Positions 48,859-54,293 of a stretch of DNA of 64,000 nucleotides are shown one piece after another. Source of the DNA: Luteibacter aegosomatissinici (GTDB lineage: Bacteria > Pseudomonadota > Gammaproteobacteria > Xanthomonadales > Rhodanobacteraceae); the NCBI RefSeq assembly GCF_023078495.1, contig NZ_CP095742.1, forward strand, positions 3,596,001-3,660,000, given 5' to 3'. Numbering within the stretch: position 1 is the first letter of the stretch; each line of letters starts with the position of its first letter. The notes beneath the pieces were generated by a model, which was not told where the DNA came from, did not search any database, and saw nothing but the letters and a program-made list of their open reading frames with translations. Position numbers and translations under genes: made by a program.

Positions 48859-50139
48859 ATGAGCGACCACTTACACAGCCCCTCCTCCCGCTCCGGTCCG
48901 TTCGTCCTGGCACGTACGCTCGCCTGGCTGCGCTTGTGCGCCATCGCCGGCCAGAGCGTCGCCATCCTTTCCTGCGTCACCTTGCTCAAGCTCGATGTGC
49001 CGCTACTGCCGCTGATGATCGGCGTGTGCGTGCTGGCAGTGTTCGCCGCTGCTGCTTCGTTCCGCCTGGGCATGCCCTGGAAGATCAGCGAGGGCGAGGC
49101 GATCGTGCACATCGCCTTCGATACGCTGGTATTGGGGTACCTGCTCTATTTCACAGGTGGCGCCTCCAATCCTTTCGTGACGCTGCTGTTGGTGCCCATC
49201 GCGCTCTCCGCCGCCGCGCTCTCCATCGTGGGCGTCGCGCTGGTGTCGATCCTGACGGGCGTGGCCTATGTGCTGCTGGTGCCTTACCACCTGCCGCTGC
49301 CCACGCTGGGCAACAAGAGCCTCGATTTCGACCTGTACGTAGCCGGCCTGGGCGTGAACTTCGTCATCATGGCGATCTTGCTTGGCGTGTTCATCAGCAA
49401 CCTGGCCAAGGCCATCCGCATCCAGCAGGATGAAGTGAACCGTGTGCGCGAGCGCGCGCTGCGCGACGAGGGCATCCTCGCGATCGCCACCCAGGCCGCG
49501 GGTGCCGCGCATGAGTTGAACACCCCGCTCTCCACCATGCGTACCCTGCTGCCCGAGATCCGCCGCGAGCATGCCGGTGACAATGCGCTGGGCGATGACC
49601 TTGATCTGCTCGAGGGCCAGGTGGAGCGCTGCCGTACGATCCTGCGCGAGATGGTGGCCTTCGGCCAGGCCCAGCTTTCACAGGAACCCGAGCGGCTCTC
49701 CGTCGGGCAATTCATCCATGTGTGCATGGAGCGCTTCCAGTTGCTGCGCCCCGAGGCCGATGTAGCCCTGAGCGTGGAACCAGGTGCCGAACGCCTCGCG
49801 CTGCGCTCACCGGCGGGACTGCGCCACGCGCTCATCAACCTGCTCAACAATGCCGTGGATGCTTCCTCGCTCAACGGTAGCGCCTTCGTCGGCTTCGATA
49901 TCCGCGTCGAGGGGCCCTGGCTGGTCCTGACCGTCACCGACGAGGGCCCGGGGTTCGATGAAGTGGATGAACTGGGTACGCTAGGCCTGTCGCAAAAGGC
50001 GACGGGCCTGGGCATCGGCCTTGCCCTGGCGGAAGCAACCGCCGAACGCCTGGATGGCGAGCTGGCTGCAAGCAATACCGGGCATGGCGCGCAGATGCGC
50101 CTGCGCCTGCCCCTTTCGGTCATTGGAGACCACACATGA
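48859..50139 (+). CDS. regB: RegB/PrrB/RoxS-like redox-sensing histidine kinase
   Basis: A 426-residue membrane kinase. Six hydrophobic segments span about residues 20-180, with the quinone-site-type motif GGASNPF (100-106). The phospho-acceptor is His218 in AAHELNTPLS. Cys258 in QVERCRTIL lies exactly 40 residues after it, the same spacing as His225 and the redox-active Cys265 of Rhodobacter RegB. The N box (LINLLNNAVDA), G1 (DEGPGF) and G2 (GLGIGLA) are intact. The stop overlaps the response-regulator start by 4 nt. It likely senses quinone or thiol redox state. Confidence 0.9.
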   Translation: MSDHLHSPSSRSGPFVLARTLAWLRLCAIAGQSVAILSCVTLLKLDVPLLPLMIGVCVLAVFAAAASFRLGMPWKISEGEAIVHIAFDTLVLGYLLYFTGGASNPFVTLLLVPIALSAAALSIVGVALVSILTGVAYVLLVPYHLPLPTLGNKSLDFDLYVAGLGVNFVIMAILLGVFISNLAKAIRIQQDEVNRVRERALRDEGILAIATQAAGAAHELNTPLSTMRTLLPEIRREHAGDNALGDDLDLLEGQVERCRTILREMVAFGQAQLSQEPERLSVGQFIHVCMERFQLLRPEADVALSVEPGAERLALRSPAGLRHALINLLNNAVDASSLNGSAFVGFDIRVEGPWLVLTVTDEGPGFDEVDELGTLGLSQKATGLGIGLALAEATAERLDGELAASNTGHGAQMRLRLPLSVIGDHT

Positions 50140-50717
50140 ATGAACTCATCCCGCCCGGCGGCCGCCCCCTGCTCATCGTCGATGACGACCCCACCTTCGC
50201 GCGCGTGCTTGGCCGCGCACTTAGCTCGCGCGGGTTCGAGGTCATCACCACCGATAACGCCGACGATGCGCGCGCGCTCACCCGCCGCCACCAGCCACGC
50301 TACTGCGTGCTCGACCTGAAGCTCGGCGACGAGAACGGCCTGCGCCTGATTCCGGAACTGCAATCGCTGGTGCCGGATATCCGCGTGCTGCTGCTCACCG
50401 GCTATGCATCGATCGCCACCGCGGTGGAGGCGATCAAGCGGGGTGCCCACGATTACCTCGCCAAGCCGGTCGACGCCGATGCCGTGGTCCGTGCGCTGCT
50501 CGATGGCGATGCAGGCCCCGCGGAAGGCGATGACCTGGTCGATGCGCCGGACGCCCCGCTGCCGCTGCGGCGGTTGGAATGGGAGCACATCCAGCGTGTG
50601 CTGACCGAGTGCGAAGGCAATATCTCCGAGACGGCTCGTCGCCTCGGTATGCATCGGCGCACGCTCCAGCGCAAGTTGAGCAAGCATCCCGTGCGCGAGC
50701 GGCCGGACGAGATCTGA
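50136..50717 (+). CDS. regA: RegA/PrrA/RoxR-like response regulator
   Basis: A 193-residue regulator. The receiver domain (about residues 10-125) has DDD near the start, the phospho-acceptor Asp in VLDLKLGDENG (about residue 66) and the conserved Lys in YLAKPVDA. A Fis-type DNA-binding helix-turn-helix closes the protein (about 150-185, NISETARRLGMHRRTLQRKL). RegA proteins are highly conserved and control respiration and redox balance. It overlaps the kinase gene by 4 nt and its stop shares a base with the next start (TGATG). Confidence 0.92.
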   Translation: MNELIPPGGRPLLIVDDDPTFARVLGRALSSRGFEVITTDNADDARALTRRHQPRYCVLDLKLGDENGLRLIPELQSLVPDIRVLLLTGYASIATAVEAIKRGAHDYLAKPVDADAVVRALLDGDAGPAEGDDLVDAPDAPLPLRRLEWEHIQRVLTECEGNISETARRLGMHRRTLQRKLSKHPVRERPDEI

Positions 50718-51886
50718 TGAACGCCATGCGCGCGATGCTCCTGGCCCTGGCGCTAACCCCCGCCGCCCACGCCCACGACATGGCCGCGATGGCCAACGAA
50801 GCCCCGCTCGGCTTCGATGCGACCATCGACAATGCGGGCCACCTGTGGGTGGTCGATACCGTAGGCGAGCATGTCCGGGTACGTCGCTCGGATGACATGG
50901 GTCGCGAATTCGCCCTCTCCACCATCGTGAACCCCACCGGCGAGCCGATCTACGCCGAAGGCGAAAATCGTCCGAAGATTGCGCTGGGCTCGAAGGGTGA
51001 GCTGTACGTAACGTGGTCGCAGCCGCGCAAGGCGCCATGGACCGGATTCGTGCGCTTCTCGCGCTCGCTCGACAACGGTGCGCACTTCGATCCGCCCAAG
51101 ACCGTACACACCGACAAGGCGGAGATTACCCACCGCTTCGATTCGCTGGCGGTGGACGGCAAGGGCAACCTCATTGTTGCCTGGATCGACAAGCGCGATC
51201 TCGAGGCGGCCACGAAGGCACATAAGCCCTACCTGGGTGCAGCGACGTATTACAGTTGGTCCACTGACCGTGGCGCGAGCTTCGCGCCGGAACAGAAGAT
51301 CACCGACCAGAGCTGTGAGTGCTGCCGCATCGCGCTCGCGCGCGCGCCGGATGGCAGCATCGATGCCTTCTTCCGCGCCATTTACGGCGACAACATCCGC
51401 GACCACGCCTTTGCCACGTTACCGGTGGGTAGCAAGCCTGCTGTCGCGCGGGCCACGTTCACGCAATGGCATATCGAAGGCTGCCCCCACCATGGGCCTT
51501 CGCTGGCGATCGATAGCACCGGCACGCGTCACGCCGTGTGGTTCAGCGCCGCCGGTGGGAAACCCGAGATCACCTACGGCCAGCTGCAGCCAGGCAAGCC
51601 GCCGGTGCATGCGTTCACCGTGGCGGGCAACGGCGCTTCGCATGCCGACCTCGCCGTGGATGGCAAGCATGTGTGGATCGCGTGGCACCAGATGTCGGCC
51701 GACGGACTGGCCTTGATGCTGCGCGAATCGAACGATGGCGGTGCCACGTTCAGCGAGCCGCGCGCCATTGCGAATACCGCCGGCCCCTCGGGATGGCCCA
51801 AGCTCGTGCTGCACGATCATCGCGCGTTCGTTGCATGGAACCCGGGCGGACAGTTCCGGCTGGTGCCCACGGAGGCGTTGCAGTGA
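50717..51886 (+). CDS. Exported BNR/sialidase-like beta-propeller protein with CxCC and CPHH motifs
   Basis: A 389-residue secreted protein. A signal peptide ends near residue 20 (AAHAHD). Repeats with Asp-box-like SxDxGxxF segments (SRSLDNGAHF, STDRGASFAPE, SNDGGATFSEP) indicate a sialidase-type propeller. Two unusual motifs, C200-E-C202-C203 and C256-P-H258-H259, look like metal or disulfide sites; sialidase catalytic residues are not evident. The ATG at 50717 overlaps the regA-like stop; the frame open from 50579 lies inside that gene. Its place between a redox regulator and a thioredoxin-fold gene suggests a redox or copper role rather than glycan cleavage. This is an inference. Confidence 0.8.
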   Translation: MNAMRAMLLALALTPAAHAHDMAAMANEAPLGFDATIDNAGHLWVVDTVGEHVRVRRSDDMGREFALSTIVNPTGEPIYAEGENRPKIALGSKGELYVTWSQPRKAPWTGFVRFSRSLDNGAHFDPPKTVHTDKAEITHRFDSLAVDGKGNLIVAWIDKRDLEAATKAHKPYLGAATYYSWSTDRGASFAPEQKITDQSCECCRIALARAPDGSIDAFFRAIYGDNIRDHAFATLPVGSKPAVARATFTQWHIEGCPHHGPSLAIDSTGTRHAVWFSAAGGKPEITYGQLQPGKPPVHAFTVAGNGASHADLAVDGKHVWIAWHQMSADGLALMLRESNDGGATFSEPRAIANTAGPSGWPKLVLHDHRAFVAWNPGGQFRLVPTEALQ

Positions 51887-52368
51887 AGCGGGGGCTGCTG
51901 CTTGGTGCGCTGGTCCTCGGCAGCGTGGTTCCTGCCGCGCCTGTCGTTGCCGCTACACCACAGGCACTGGATGCGAAGGGAGTCCCGGCGCTCGTCGCGG
52001 TGCCAGCGAAAGGCAGCAAGGTGGTCGCGCTTTGGTCGCTCGACTGTGCGTACTGCGAAGAGAACCTGGCGGCACTGCGTGCATACCAGCGCCAGCACCC
52101 GGATGTCGATCTCATCTACGTCGCCACGGACCCGGTACGCCAGGGCGAGGCGCTGGAAGCGCGGCTGAAGCATGCGAAGCTCGATGATGTGCCCGCACGG
52201 GCATACGCCGATGCCACACCGGACCGCTTGAACTTCCTGATCGACCCAAGCTGGGGTGGCGAAACACCACGTACGCTGGTCGTACACGCTGACGGATCAC
52301 GCCAGGCGTACAGCGGCGCACTCACGCCCGAGCGTATCGCTACCCTGCTACATCAATCGAAACCCTGA
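51883..52368 (+). CDS. Exported thioredoxin-fold protein (TlpA-like)
   Basis: A 161-residue protein with a signal peptide (residues 1-23, ending PVVAA) and a thioredoxin fold whose active-site motif is Cys55-Ala-Tyr-Cys58 (ALWSLDCAYCEEN). A cis-proline loop follows in GGETPRTLVV. It is probably periplasmic and could reduce or oxidise the cysteines of the preceding BNR protein. The start is a GTG at 51883 overlapping the previous stop (GTGA) with GGAGG 7 nt upstream; the longer frame would lie inside that gene. It ends the regB-regA operon and is convergent with the next kinase gene. Confidence 0.85.
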   Translation: MKRGLLLGALVLGSVVPAAPVVAATPQALDAKGVPALVAVPAKGSKVVALWSLDCAYCEENLAALRAYQRQHPDVDLIYVATDPVRQGEALEARLKHAKLDDVPARAYADATPDRLNFLIDPSWGGETPRTLVVHADGSRQAYSGALTPERIATLLHQSKP

Positions 52369-52414: not shown

Positions 52415-53416
52415 TTAAGCCTCGATGGGCTGCGGATTTGGGAAGCGAACGCTGGCGACGCGCGAGGCGCCTGGCAGGGCGCGCAACTCCAGCGGCCACT
52501 GGAACCTGTCCGACAGACGTCGTGCAATGGCGAGATCAAAGCCATGCCTGTCGACAGACGCATGCCTACGGGTCTCCGGGTCGGGCATGTCGACCGCCGG
52601 GTTGATGACGCTGACGCTACCGGGCATCACGGTGACCACGATGGTTCCCTGGTCGGTCTGCTGCAGTGCGTGGCGGATGAGCTGGCCACACAGCACGGCA
52701 AACACCCGTGGCGAGGCGTGCAACGCGAACGCCGCCGGCTCGTCGAGTATCAGCTCCACGGGCCTGCCCGCGATCAGTTCGCGCGCGTAGTCCACTTCCT
52801 GGCGCAGCACCTTGTTGACGATGAAATCTTCTTCGGCAAGGCCCTGGTCGGATTCACGCGACAAGATAAGGAAGGCTTCCACCAACGATTCGAGCTCACG
52901 CGTCGATCGGCGGATGCGTTCGAGCGATCGGTGACCAAACTCGGACAGATCCGTCTCGTCCGCCAGCATGTCGGAGGACATCTTGATGACGGTGAGCGGG
53001 CTACGCAGTTCATGGCTGGCATCGCGGGTGAAGTTGCGCTCGCGTTCGCCATAACCCTCGATGCGCGAAGCAAGCCCATGCAGGCCACGAACCAGCGACG
53101 CGACATCACCATCCTTGCCCTTGCCCTTACCCTCTTCCGCGGCCAGCCCTTCCATATCGGGGTGATCGGGATCCCACCCGTTGAGCAAGCGCGCGAGCGC
53201 GGCGATGGGCAGCCACGCCCGTGACACGGCCAGCCATGCCAATGCGCCCGAACAGAGCATGATCGCCAACGCCGCACCCAGGGGCGCGACGTTATAGGCG
53301 GCCATCAACGAAGCGATGACCACCACGAGCATCTGTAACCCGAAGACAATGGCGATGCGGGCGCGGAATGATCCGCGCCAGCCCCGCCCTGCCCCCTGCG
53401 ATGTCCTGCCTTCCAT
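52415..53416 (-). CDS. Histidine kinase with degenerate ATPase domain
   Basis: A 333-residue membrane sensor. Two hydrophobic segments (about 20-40 and 47-67) have almost no periplasmic loop between them, then a HAMP-like linker leads to the dimerisation domain with His135 in RDASHELRSPL. The C-terminal domain has the length of a HATPase but lacks key residues: the N box reads GQLIRHAL (His for the Mg-binding Asn), G1 reads INPAVDMPD with no DxGxG, and G2 reads HGFDLAIARRL. Kinase activity is therefore doubtful; it may act as a phosphatase or need a partner. It is downstream of its OmpR-type regulator by 27 nt. Confidence 0.85.
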   Translation of the reverse strand: MEGRTSQGAGRGWRGSFRARIAIVFGLQMLVVVIASLMAAYNVAPLGAALAIMLCSGALAWLAVSRAWLPIAALARLLNGWDPDHPDMEGLAAEEGKGKGKDGDVASLVRGLHGLASRIEGYGERERNFTRDASHELRSPLTVIKMSSDMLADETDLSEFGHRSLERIRRSTRELESLVEAFLILSRESDQGLAEEDFIVNKVLRQEVDYARELIAGRPVELILDEPAAFALHASPRVFAVLCGQLIRHALQQTDQGTIVVTVMPGSVSVINPAVDMPDPETRRHASVDRHGFDLAIARRLSDRFQWPLELRALPGASRVASVRFPNPQPIEA

Positions 53417-53443
53417 CGATTACTTCCGGCCCCTCACCTTCCG

Positions 53444-54172
53444 TCAGGCCGTCTGGGAGGCGGCGACCTCGGAATCGAGGTCGGCAAGGCGATAGCCCGC
53501 CGAGTGGATGGTATGCAGCAGCGGGCGATCGAACGGCTTGTCGATCACGCGGCGCAGGTTGTAGAGGTGCGAACGCAGGGTGTCCGAATCGGGCAGCGTA
53601 TCGCCCCAGATCTCGCGTTCAATATCGCGGCGGCTCACCACACGCGGCGATTCGCGCATGAGGATGGCCAGCAGCTTCAGGCCGATCGGAGAAACCGTAA
53701 GTTCCTGGCCACCACGGGTGAGGCGAAGCGTCGCCGTATCCAGGGTCATGTCGCCCACCGTGAGCACCTCAGACGACACCTGGCGGCGATCGCGACGGAT
53801 CAGGGCGCGCAGGCGAGCCTCGAGCTCGCGTACTTCGAACGGCTTGACGAGGTAATCGTCGGCGCCTGCTTCCAGGCCCACCAGCTTGTCTTCCAGGGTA
53901 TCGCGTGCCGTGAGCATGAGTACCGGGGTGGACTTCTTCCCGTCCTTGCGCAGCTTGCGGCACACATCCAGGCCGTCCATGCCCGGGAGCATCAGGTCGA
54001 GCACGATCACGTCGTAACTATTGGAGACCGCAAGGTGCAGGCCACTGACGCCGTCGGCCGCGTAGTCGACGGAGTAGCCCCGGCGTTCAAGGAATTCGCC
54101 CACCATTTCGGCGATCTGACGGTTGTCCTCGACAAGGAGGATCAGGCCAGCTTGTTCGTCGCGGTTGCTCAT
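53444..54172 (-). CDS. OmpR/PhoB-family response regulator
   Basis: A 242-residue regulator. The receiver domain (about residues 8-122) has EDN, the phospho-acceptor Asp in VLDLMLPGMDG and Lys in DYLVKPF. The winged-helix DNA-binding domain (about 140-230) shows SPIGLKLLAILMRESPRVVS and LRSHLYNLRRVIDKP. The ATG at 54172 follows AAGGAGAG; the in-frame ATG 9 codons earlier is less well supported. It precedes the degenerate kinase gene in one operon. The regulon is unknown. Confidence 0.94.
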   Translation of the reverse strand: MSNRDEQAGLILLVEDNRQIAEMVGEFLERRGYSVDYAADGVSGLHLAVSNSYDVIVLDLMLPGMDGLDVCRKLRKDGKKSTPVLMLTARDTLEDKLVGLEAGADDYLVKPFEVRELEARLRALIRRDRRQVSSEVLTVGDMTLDTATLRLTRGGQELTVSPIGLKLLAILMRESPRVVSRRDIEREIWGDTLPDSDTLRSHLYNLRRVIDKPFDRPLLHTIHSAGYRLADLDSEVAASQTA

Positions 54173-54293
54173 CGCTCCACTCTCCTTTCGGTGATTCACA
54201 AATGTGAAGAGTTAACGGCCGGACCGGTGAGAACAGCGTGAAGACCGAAAACAAGCATTCATTCTGGGTAGGCGAACGTCGACGTTTCGTGGA

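What the first reader, a model, noticed from the sequence alone, without database searches (positions are those of the whole stretch)
48859..52368. Redox regulator operon that includes a secreted CxCC/CPHH beta-propeller and a thioredoxin-fold protein
Four genes are chained by overlaps of 1 to 4 nt (ATGA, TGATG, GTGA), so they were selected as one unit. The kinase keeps the RegB redox-cysteine spacing (His218 to Cys258, 40 residues). The other two products are exported: a sialidase-type propeller with C200-x-C202-C203 and C256-P-H-H, and a CAYC thioredoxin-fold protein. In Rhodobacter the equivalent locus carries a Sco-type copper/thiol protein (SenC/PrrC). The hypothesis is that the propeller is a metal or thiol sensor or cargo, maintained by the thioredoxin-like protein and feeding back on the kinase. 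I know of no description of this arrangement.
Basis: partly seen in the sequence, partly recalled or inferred. Interest (0 to 1): 0.7.

Follow-up and report, generated by a model that had tools for sequence, protein, structure and literature searches.

The report
Copper-uptake-linked cysteine propeller beside RegBA
A secreted, propeller-shaped protein that databases call a sialidase probably handles copper after it enters the cell: its relatives sit in copper-uptake gene clusters beside an outer-membrane receptor and a thioredoxin-like partner, and in this bacterium the pair has become coupled to an oxygen- and redox-sensing gene pair.

Summary
The four overlapping genes are as described: RegB-like kinase, RegA-like regulator, exported propeller with CxCC and CPHH, and CAYC thioredoxin-fold protein. 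The host is inferred to be Luteibacter. All four occur together in 21 of 23 same-genus genomes; two lack the propeller.

The propeller is not mainly a RegBA accessory. Elsewhere it usually sits between a TonB-dependent receptor and the thioredoxin-like gene (receptor at 13 of 15 phylum-sample loci), often with CruR or PCuAC. In the loci examined, RegBA is linked only in Rhodanobacteraceae and one metagenome contig, and stands alone in relatives without the propeller. Luteibacter keeps a receptor of the same family elsewhere, behind a DUF2946 leader.

Four cysteines are invariant in 69 aligned sequences; the CPHH histidines are not. CxCC and CPHH share one register in adjacent blades.

Best reading: a periplasmic soft-metal (probably copper) protein kept reduced by its thioredoxin-like partner, here coupled to a redox regulator whose Rhodobacter homologue binds copper. 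Metal binding is unproven; Cys-Cys distances could not be measured.

The parts
48859..50139 (+). RegB/ActS/PrrB-like membrane histidine kinase (426 aa): H-box HELNTPL at His218, Cys258, quinone-type GGASNPF heptapeptide at 100-106
   Evidence: GGxxNPF in 46 of 46 and His-to-Cys spacing of 40 in 38 of 46 HK rows (score over 150) by regex; of five unmatched rows inspected, three have Cys at +40 and two have Arg there; the other three unmatched rows lack the H-box regex
50136..50717 (+). RegA/ActR/PrrA-like response regulator (193 aa) with Fis-type HTH and Cys159 just before it (RVLTECEGNIS)
   Evidence: the Cys motif is found in 39 of 46 RR rows (score over 150), 7 not matched; Cys156 of Rhodobacter RegA forms the copper-stimulated disulfide (PMC9147068)
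50717..51886 (+). Exported seven-bladed propeller (389 aa), relatives named sialidase/exo-alpha-sialidase; C200/C202/C203 (blade 4) and C256/H258/H259 (blade 5)
50717..50794 (+). Likely signal peptide and His/Met-bearing mature N-terminus (AHA-HDMAAM, by inspection)
   Evidence: no signal-peptide predictor available
51314..51325 (+). Codons of C200-E-C202-C203 at the entry to the inner strand of blade 4
51482..51493 (+). Codons of C256-P-H258-H259, same register in blade 5
51883..52368 (+). Exported thioredoxin-fold protein (161 aa, GTG start) with CAYC; solved folds matched include DsbF, ResA, StoA and TlpA

Best explanation
The propeller and its thioredoxin-like partner are the periplasmic end of a TonB-dependent copper-acquisition module. 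Copper (free or chelated) is brought across the outer membrane by a TonB-dependent receptor. The propeller binds or processes it with an invariant Cys4 set (C200, C202, C203, C256) plus lineage-variable histidines and a His/Met-rich N-terminus. The co-encoded thioredoxin-like protein keeps those thiols reduced, as TlpA does for ScoI and CoxB, and copper passes on to the oxidase-assembly chaperones (PCuAC/Sco). In Rhodanobacteraceae the module lies behind regBA. In Luteibacter no receptor is at this site, so propeller and TRX directly abut regBA, while a related receptor with a DUF2946 (CruR-type) leader lies elsewhere in the genome. RegBA would match the supply of oxidase copper to oxygen/redox state. 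SHOWN: gene order, conservation, predicted fold, blade register, absence of the receptor here and its presence elsewhere. INFERRED: loss or replacement of the receptor, copper as substrate, the thiol/metal site, reduction by TRX, shared transcription, purpose.
For: Linkage: a receptor upstream on the same strand in 89 of 96 and TRX downstream in 92 of 96 non-CPV rows outside Luteibacter, at least three places counted twice. Phylum sample alone: 13 of 15 receptor, 13 of 15 TRX, 9 PCuAC, 6 CruR. Neighbour identities were confirmed on one representative each (two for DUF2946): TonB receptor, PCuAC, DUF1775/YcnI, CopC-CopD, DUF2946, TonB, ExbB, ExbD. CruR is a demonstrated copper-responsive leader (PMC9426467), and receptors for oxidase copper exist (PMC12914433; PMC12617631). 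Own genome: a same-family receptor at 183.8 kb behind a DUF2946 ORF scoring 46.9 (cut-off 23.7). It groups with the propeller-linked receptor L168 (0.997). PCuAC and SCO matches lie 168 nt apart at 1.3386-1.3395 Mb. Protein: four Cys invariant in 69 of 69 rows; CxCC and CP in 15 of 15 phylum and 20 of 20 family rows, which were not selected by motif; CxCC and CPHH in equal register of neighbouring blades. At least 3 His+Met in the 25 residues after the hydrophobic core in 77 of 99 non-CPV rows against 0 of 12 CPV rows (rows are related, so the test value there overstates significance). TRX fold matches include TlpA complexes 4txo/4txv. Rhodobacter RegA binds copper (PMC9147068).
Against: No metal site was demonstrated and no interatomic distance could be read. 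The four Cys could be two plain disulfides. The copper genes sit with relatives, not in this operon, and neither CruR nor PCuAC was detected by profile near the module in the Rhodanobacteraceae rows (one CruR-like ORF by regex at L202). Two same-genus genomes keep the receptor without a propeller, so the receptor does not strictly need it. The receptor is far below the TIGR01778 copper-receptor cut-off (29.3 of 472.45). In the CPV clade the Cys4 set persists with no receptor or TRX neighbour (0 of 13 rows); of ten CPV loci inspected, five showed no metal gene by eye and one was not resolved. No sigma-70-like promoter was found in the region, and the one terminator-like match lies inside the kinase gene. 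For B. japonicum, PMC12617631 states that deleting the receptor gene pcuB had no detectable phenotype.
Confidence: 0.58

Rival explanations
1. Structural-disulfide reading: the four Cys form two disulfides that staple blades 4 and 5, the thioredoxin-like protein is their disulfide isomerase, and the propeller is a ligand- or chelate-binding protein (lectin or periplasmic binding type) for whatever the receptor imports, without binding metal through Cys.
For: Inferred periplasmic location, a co-encoded thioredoxin-fold partner, adjacent blades in equal register; fold matches are lectins, sialidases and other glycan-active proteins; invariant D158, R160, R220 and R228 would suit an anionic ligand pocket.
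Against: His/Met enrichment at the N-terminus and copper-gene linkage suggest a metal. That CxCC is unusual for plain disulfides is my opinion, not tested.
Confidence: 0.22
2. One reading: the propeller is a sensor or cargo of the RegBA system that feeds back on the kinase, with the thioredoxin-like protein as its redox partner.
For: Tight junction to regBA at 28 of 28 Luteibacter loci; HK+RR next to the module in 14 of 15 and 14 of 16 other non-CPV Rhodanobacteraceae rows.
Against: RegB-like kinases occur without the propeller (11 of 11 searched), the propeller without RegBA in most rows outside the family, and also within it at L100, L190 and L196.
Confidence: 0.1
3. True sialidase or other glycan-active enzyme, as the database names say.
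For: Four Asp-box-like SxDxGxxF motifs; sialidase-class fold; source names 'exo-alpha-sialidase' and 'sialidase family protein' among listed relatives.
Against: BNR_2 below cut-off and no NCBIfam sialidase model; invariant residues are Cys-centred; copper genes among the neighbours. Catalytic residues were not mapped.
Confidence: 0.05

Closest known systems
CruR-CrtA(BfrG)-PepSY_TM copper-uptake operon, Bordetella pertussis (PMC9426467, PMC12914433)
   Same: DUF2946 leader, TonB receptor, sometimes PCuAC/Sco and TonB-ExbBD nearby; copper for respiratory oxidases
   Different: Third gene is PepSY_TM; 'propeller', 'sialidase' and 'thioredoxin' do not occur in either main text, though PMC9426467 mentions AhpC_TSA genes in CruR operons, which could include this TRX type; the receptor here is not shown to be CrtA-type; the window locus carries regBA instead of receptor and leader
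pcuABCDE, Bradyrhizobium japonicum (Serventi 2012, not held; abstract recalled, cited)
   Same: Receptor, PCuAC, and by recall YcnI- and CopCD-like genes; Bradyrhizobium-type loci such as L120, L130, L131, L134-L136, L138, L139, L141 and L144 hold propeller and TRX in one row with PCuAC, YcnI and CopCD
   Different: As I recall the abstract, the described operon has five genes without a propeller or TRX; no regBA
TlpA with ScoI and CoxB, Bradyrhizobium (PMC6696091 passage)
   Same: Thioredoxin-fold periplasmic reductase of copper-site proteins; fold match to 4txo/4txv
   Different: Window protein is CAYC, 161 aa, below the NCBIfam TlpA cut-off (16.0 of 230), and its presumed client is a propeller
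RegB/RegA-SenC locus, Rhodobacter (PMC9147068)
   Same: Redox two-component pair next to an exported copper/thiol protein gene; Cys before the RegA HTH conserved
   Different: Non-homologous partner: propeller plus TRX rather than Sco/SenC; kinase and regulator below equivalog cut-offs
GH33-type sialidases and PLL-type lectins
   Same: Seven-bladed fold, Asp-box-like motifs
   Different: About 9 to 15 percent identity in the Foldseek rows listed, CxCC/CP invariant, copper-gene context

Membership tests
RegB/ActS/PrrB kinase (NF033792) | Curated equivalog score of 350 bits | tested here: not met
   214.2 bits, best of all families
RegB/ActS/PrrB kinase (NF033792) | H-box, redox Cys about 40 residues on, GGxxNPF quinone heptapeptide | tested here: met
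   His218, Cys258, GGASNPF
RegB/ActS/PrrB kinase (NF033792) | Redox- or quinone-controlled autophosphorylation | not testable with these tools
   needs biochemistry
RegA/ActR/PrrA regulator (NF033791) | Curated equivalog score of 250 bits | tested here: not met
   197.8 bits, best of all families
RegA/ActR/PrrA regulator (NF033791) | Receiver plus Fis-type HTH with conserved Cys before the HTH | tested here: met
   PF00072, PF02954; Cys159
Sialidase (GH33 / BNR_2) | BNR_2 gathering score of 31.4 | tested here: not met
   25.0 bits
Sialidase (GH33 / BNR_2) | Catalytic Arg triad, Tyr/Glu and Asp (recalled) | not tested
   no coordinates or residue-level structural alignment available
TonB-dependent copper-acquisition module (working definition) | Receptor and copper genes at the propeller locus in relatives | tested here: met
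   receptor 13 of 15, PCuAC 9 of 15, CruR 6 of 15 phylum rows
TonB-dependent copper-acquisition module (working definition) | Receptor and copper genes at the window's own locus | tested here: not met
   receptor 0 of 8, CruR 0 of 8, PCuAC 0 of 8 Luteibacter rows
CruR / DUF2946 leader before the host's own receptor | PF11162 over cut-off, CXXC, C-terminal RAPP | tested here: inconclusive
   46.9 bits, CGYC present; the C-terminal motif reads RGPP, not RAPP
OprC-type copper receptor (TIGR01778) | Score of 472.45 | tested here: not met
   29.3 bits for the host receptor, 37.0 for L088
TlpA-like thioredoxin | Thioredoxin fold with CxxC and conserved Pro | tested here: met
   model pLDDT 88.2, fold matches; C55, C58, P129 invariant in 14 rows
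TlpA-like thioredoxin | NCBIfam TlpA score of 230 | tested here: not met
   16.0 bits

The most novel reading that the evidence does not exclude
The CxCC/CP propellers are an undescribed class of periplasmic copper protein: a seven-bladed propeller that takes copper from a TonB receptor in a Cys4(+His) site shared by two adjacent blades, with its own TlpA-like reductase. Many entries now named sialidase would be this. In Luteibacter it is hard-wired to a RegA-type regulator of the kind that binds copper in Rhodobacter, closing a loop between copper supply, oxygen and oxidase expression.
Probability: 0.33. Interest if true: 0.8.

Novelty: new variant of a known kind. Interest (0 to 1): 0.57.

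Why it matters
How bacteria handle copper between the outer membrane and the oxidase chaperones is open: the abstract of PMC12914433 calls copper acquisition pathways poorly characterized. This work names a widespread candidate for that step (3761 relatives at E <= 1e-3 in a capped search; not all need share the Cys set), gives it a likely reductant, and suggests that its annotation as a sialidase is wrong. It also offers a second, non-homologous example of an exported copper/thiol gene next to RegBA, beside SenC, which makes the proposed link between copper and RegA testable in another lineage.

Tried and rejected
Sialidase annotation: rejected as a functional guide. Propeller as an obligate RegBA partner: rejected on distribution. 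'Luteibacter lacks the receptor': rejected after searches found it elsewhere. Simple relocation of the native receptor: not favoured, since the tree puts the host receptor with L168 rather than with the main Rhodanobacteraceae operonic clade. That tree is weak: one FastTree run of 55 sequences, some low supports (0.343), one host receptor meant as outgroup (L163) fell inside, and six other family receptors (L190, L193, L194, L197, L198, L202) fell in other clades. CruR near RR in Rhodanobacteraceae: by regex only at L202 among 35 loci scanned, eight of which have the propeller and no receptor as next gene and one of which (L193) has RR downstream.

A claim of Cys-Cys proximity from the model was dropped: structure prediction gives no coordinates. 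PDB sequence searches found nothing for the propeller alone and only partial matches, to sialidases and related proteins, for its profile.

Literature: eight full-text searches were run in a library of open papers. Searches used propeller, sialidase or BNR terms; none of the titles and abstract starts listed describes this propeller. Word searches found no 'propeller' or 'sialidase' in the main texts of PMC12914433, PMC9426467, PMC9973294 and PMC8456105. Subscription papers and supplements (such as neighbour tables) were not searched, so an unnamed mention there is possible.

One search selected loci partly by a pattern containing CP[HV][HN]GP and kept the best 80 of 546, so the Cys256/HH counts from L080-L159, and in A2, are biased; the phylum and family samples are not. 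Of 21 places I fetched context for 15, leaving out the window's own, G043 (fetched) and four weak partial ones. Of 49 full-length places I fetched 20, none of them Luteibacter, chosen across genera. The TBDT and TRX profiles used for counting were built from the loci. In one search one row (N-terminal fragment at L150) is left out of the non-CPV counts. 'Receptor' means a same-strand profile match ending -300 to 1500 bp before the propeller; 'TRX' one starting -300 to 600 bp after it; copper genes lie within 6 kb. In one search TRX rows under score 90 and propeller rows without a clear hydrophobic core were dropped.
Full report
What is there. The window carries kinase 48859-50139, regulator 50136-50717, propeller 50717-51886 and thioredoxin-like gene 51883-52368 on the + strand, overlapping by 4, 1 and 4 nt. 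A POT-family transporter ends 48 nt upstream of the kinase. Named protein hits among the best are Luteibacter, so I infer that host. HK, RR, propeller and TRX were found together in all 21 same-genus genomes that have the propeller; two of 23 lack it. The first listed in-frame propeller start is -4 to +14 nt from the RR stop at all 28 Luteibacter loci looked at.

The regulators. The kinase and regulator match RegB/ActS/PrrB and RegA/ActR/PrrA models best but below their cut-offs. GGxxNPF is kept in 46 of 46 kinase rows and the His-Cys spacing of 40 in 38 of 46 by regex; of five unmatched rows inspected three have Cys at +40. The regulator has Cys159 just before the HTH, where Rhodobacter RegA has Cys156. 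PMC9147068 (abstract and passages read) reports that RegA binds copper, that Cu2+ with oxygen drives a Cys156 disulfide, and that senC is invariably co-transcribed with group 1 regA and/or regB.

The propeller family. In an alignment of 69 sequences, C200, C202, C203, C256, P257, D158, R160, R220, R228, F141, W156, W251 and W374 are invariant. CPHHGP occurs in 52 of 69 and CPVNGP in 15; positions 230 and 272 are His in 53 of 69 each. Many of these rows come, whose pattern included Cys256; in rows not selected by motif, CxCC and CP are present in 15 of 15 (phylum) and 20 of 20 (family). There the two residues after CP vary, so HH is favoured, not required. The AlphaFold model (pLDDT 92.2, pTM 0.89) has strands that I read as seven blades. 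Its fold matches are sialidases, PLL lectins, CylK and glycoside hydrolases. Setting the blades in register on the inner strand, with anchors chosen by me, puts C200-x-C202-C203 of blade 4 and C256-P-H258-H259 of blade 5 at the same positions (-7, -5, -4), with H139 of blade 3 also at -5. This suggests, but does not prove, that they face each other at the channel mouth. Non-CPV members have a His/Met-rich stretch after the signal-like core (77 of 99 rows with three or more in 25 residues, against 0 of 12 CPV rows).

The neighbourhood elsewhere. Clustering genes in 80 named loci and checking representatives in Pfam showed a TonB-dependent receptor before the propeller, TRX after it, and often PCuAC, YcnI, CopC-CopD, CruR/DUF2946 or TonB-ExbB-ExbD. 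Counts: phylum sample, 15 rows: 13 receptor, 13 TRX, 9 PCuAC, 6 CruR, 0 HK+RR. Family sample without Luteibacter, 20 rows: 15 receptor, 16 TRX, 14 HK+RR, 0 CruR, 0 PCuAC; the four CPV rows among them have none. One search set, non-CPV: Rhodanobacteraceae other than Luteibacter 14 of 15 receptor, 15 of 15 TRX, 14 of 15 HK+RR, 0 CruR or PCuAC; all others 47 of 51 receptor, 48 of 51 TRX, 29 CruR, 30 PCuAC, 1 of 51 HK+RR. Luteibacter: 0 of 8 receptor, 8 of 8 TRX and HK+RR. CPV rows, 13 in all: none with receptor or TRX. So the direct copper-gene linkage comes from lineages outside Rhodanobacteraceae.

What happened in Luteibacter. Other Rhodanobacteraceae mostly have HK-RR-receptor-propeller-TRX; outside the family it is mostly receptor-propeller-TRX. 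Luteibacter has HK-RR-propeller-TRX. Searching 28 genomes with the host's receptor, 15 of 15 same-genus and 12 of 13 other genomes have exactly one hit at E <= 1e-90. In those 12 the hit abuts the propeller (gaps under 180 nt); in the same-genus genomes with a propeller it lies elsewhere (compared). The host's receptor (G000 C1:183806-186094) follows a DUF2946 ORF (46.9 bits, cut-off 23.7; CGYC, RGPP end). It groups with the propeller-linked receptor L168 (0.997) inside a 0.972 clade with the main Rhodanobacteraceae receptor group, while six other family receptors fall elsewhere. RegB-like kinases are present in 13 of 13 family genomes searched, 11 of them without propeller; at the nine such loci fetched, HK and RR stand without receptor, propeller or TRX. 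The simplest history is that a copper module joined a core regBA pair and, in Luteibacter, has no receptor at that site; loss or replacement is inference.

The partner. The thioredoxin-like protein models with high confidence (pLDDT 88.2) and matches thioredoxin-fold proteins: DsbF, ResA, StoA and TlpA, including TlpA mixed-disulfide complexes with ScoI and CoxB. TlpA reduces ScoI and oxidase subunit II, per PMC6696091 (passage). CxxC is present in 99 of 99 TRX rows scoring 90 or more, CAYC the commonest with 36. PMC9426467 mentions AhpC_TSA genes in CruR operons and ties them to peroxide; since one TRX relative scores 24.5 against AhpC-TSA (cut-off 26), those may be this gene.

Mechanism. From linkage, the conserved Cys set, the N-terminus and the TRX partner, I propose periplasmic copper handling after TonB-dependent import, with thiols kept reduced by TRX and hand-over to PCuAC/Sco, whose matches lie 168 nt apart at 1.3386-1.3395 Mb of the host (a second SCO match at 1.3965 Mb). 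Copper imports of related design with experimental support are CruR/CrtA (PMC9426467 passages; PMC12914433 abstract, passages and one section) and TccA (PMC12617631 passages and one section). Copper as the substrate here is inference.

Against it. The receptor does not meet the known copper-receptor model. The Cys set outlives copper linkage in the CPV clade, where only some loci have metal genes: an HMA protein directly upstream in two Neomarinimicrobiota contigs (Pfam on L158; L159 by inspection) and CusB-type and RND efflux genes plus YtkA beside it in L155 (L157 by cluster), with none seen by eye at L154, L156, L195, L200 and L201 and L170 not resolved. Two same-genus genomes do without the propeller. 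Two plain disulfides would also explain four conserved Cys.

Verdict. I found no description of the propeller in the searches listed under Tried and rejected.

Noticed in passing
L158:149-520 and L159:6593-6964: In two Neomarinimicrobiota contigs the distant CPVN-type propeller directly follows a small protein with a heavy-metal-associated (HMA) domain (Pfam on L158; L159 by inspection), hinting that the Cys set handles soft metals even without the receptor.
   Followed up: partly
L155:2493-9355 and L157: CPVN-type propeller with a cytochrome c gene upstream and an RND pump, CusB-type fusion protein and YtkA-like gene on the other strand.
   Followed up: partly
L153:8060-10103: CPVN-type propeller with a convergent row of MIP channel, LMWPc phosphatase-type, GNAT and glyoxalase genes; by recall this resembles arsenic clusters, not tested.
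   Followed up: no
L140 and L149: Bradyrhizobium loci with two TonB receptors, the second one followed by PCuAC-YcnI-CopCD: propeller cluster and pcu-like cluster side by side; in L149 each receptor has a CruR-type leader.
   Followed up: no
L150:2182-8677: Gammaproteobacterial metagenome contig with RegBA-like genes divergent from receptor-propeller-TRX; its receptor and propeller matches are each split over two frames. The only RegBA linkage seen outside Rhodanobacteraceae.
   Followed up: no
L167:4803-7793: Convergent to the host's DUF2946-receptor pair lies a 996-aa ORF that by inspection looks like a kinase-LanC (class III/IV lanthipeptide synthetase type) protein; not tested.
   Followed up: no
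L102 (CAMBTO010000012.1): Contig labelled Klebsiella pneumoniae carries receptor-propeller-TRX; its receptor groups with those of Pseudohongiella and another gammaproteobacterial bin, so it may be a mislabelled metagenome bin.
   Followed up: no
window 52415-54199 (-): By inspection of the ORFs, a second sensor kinase (333 aa) and an OmpR-like regulator (251 aa) lie convergent to the thioredoxin-like gene; not tested.
   Followed up: no
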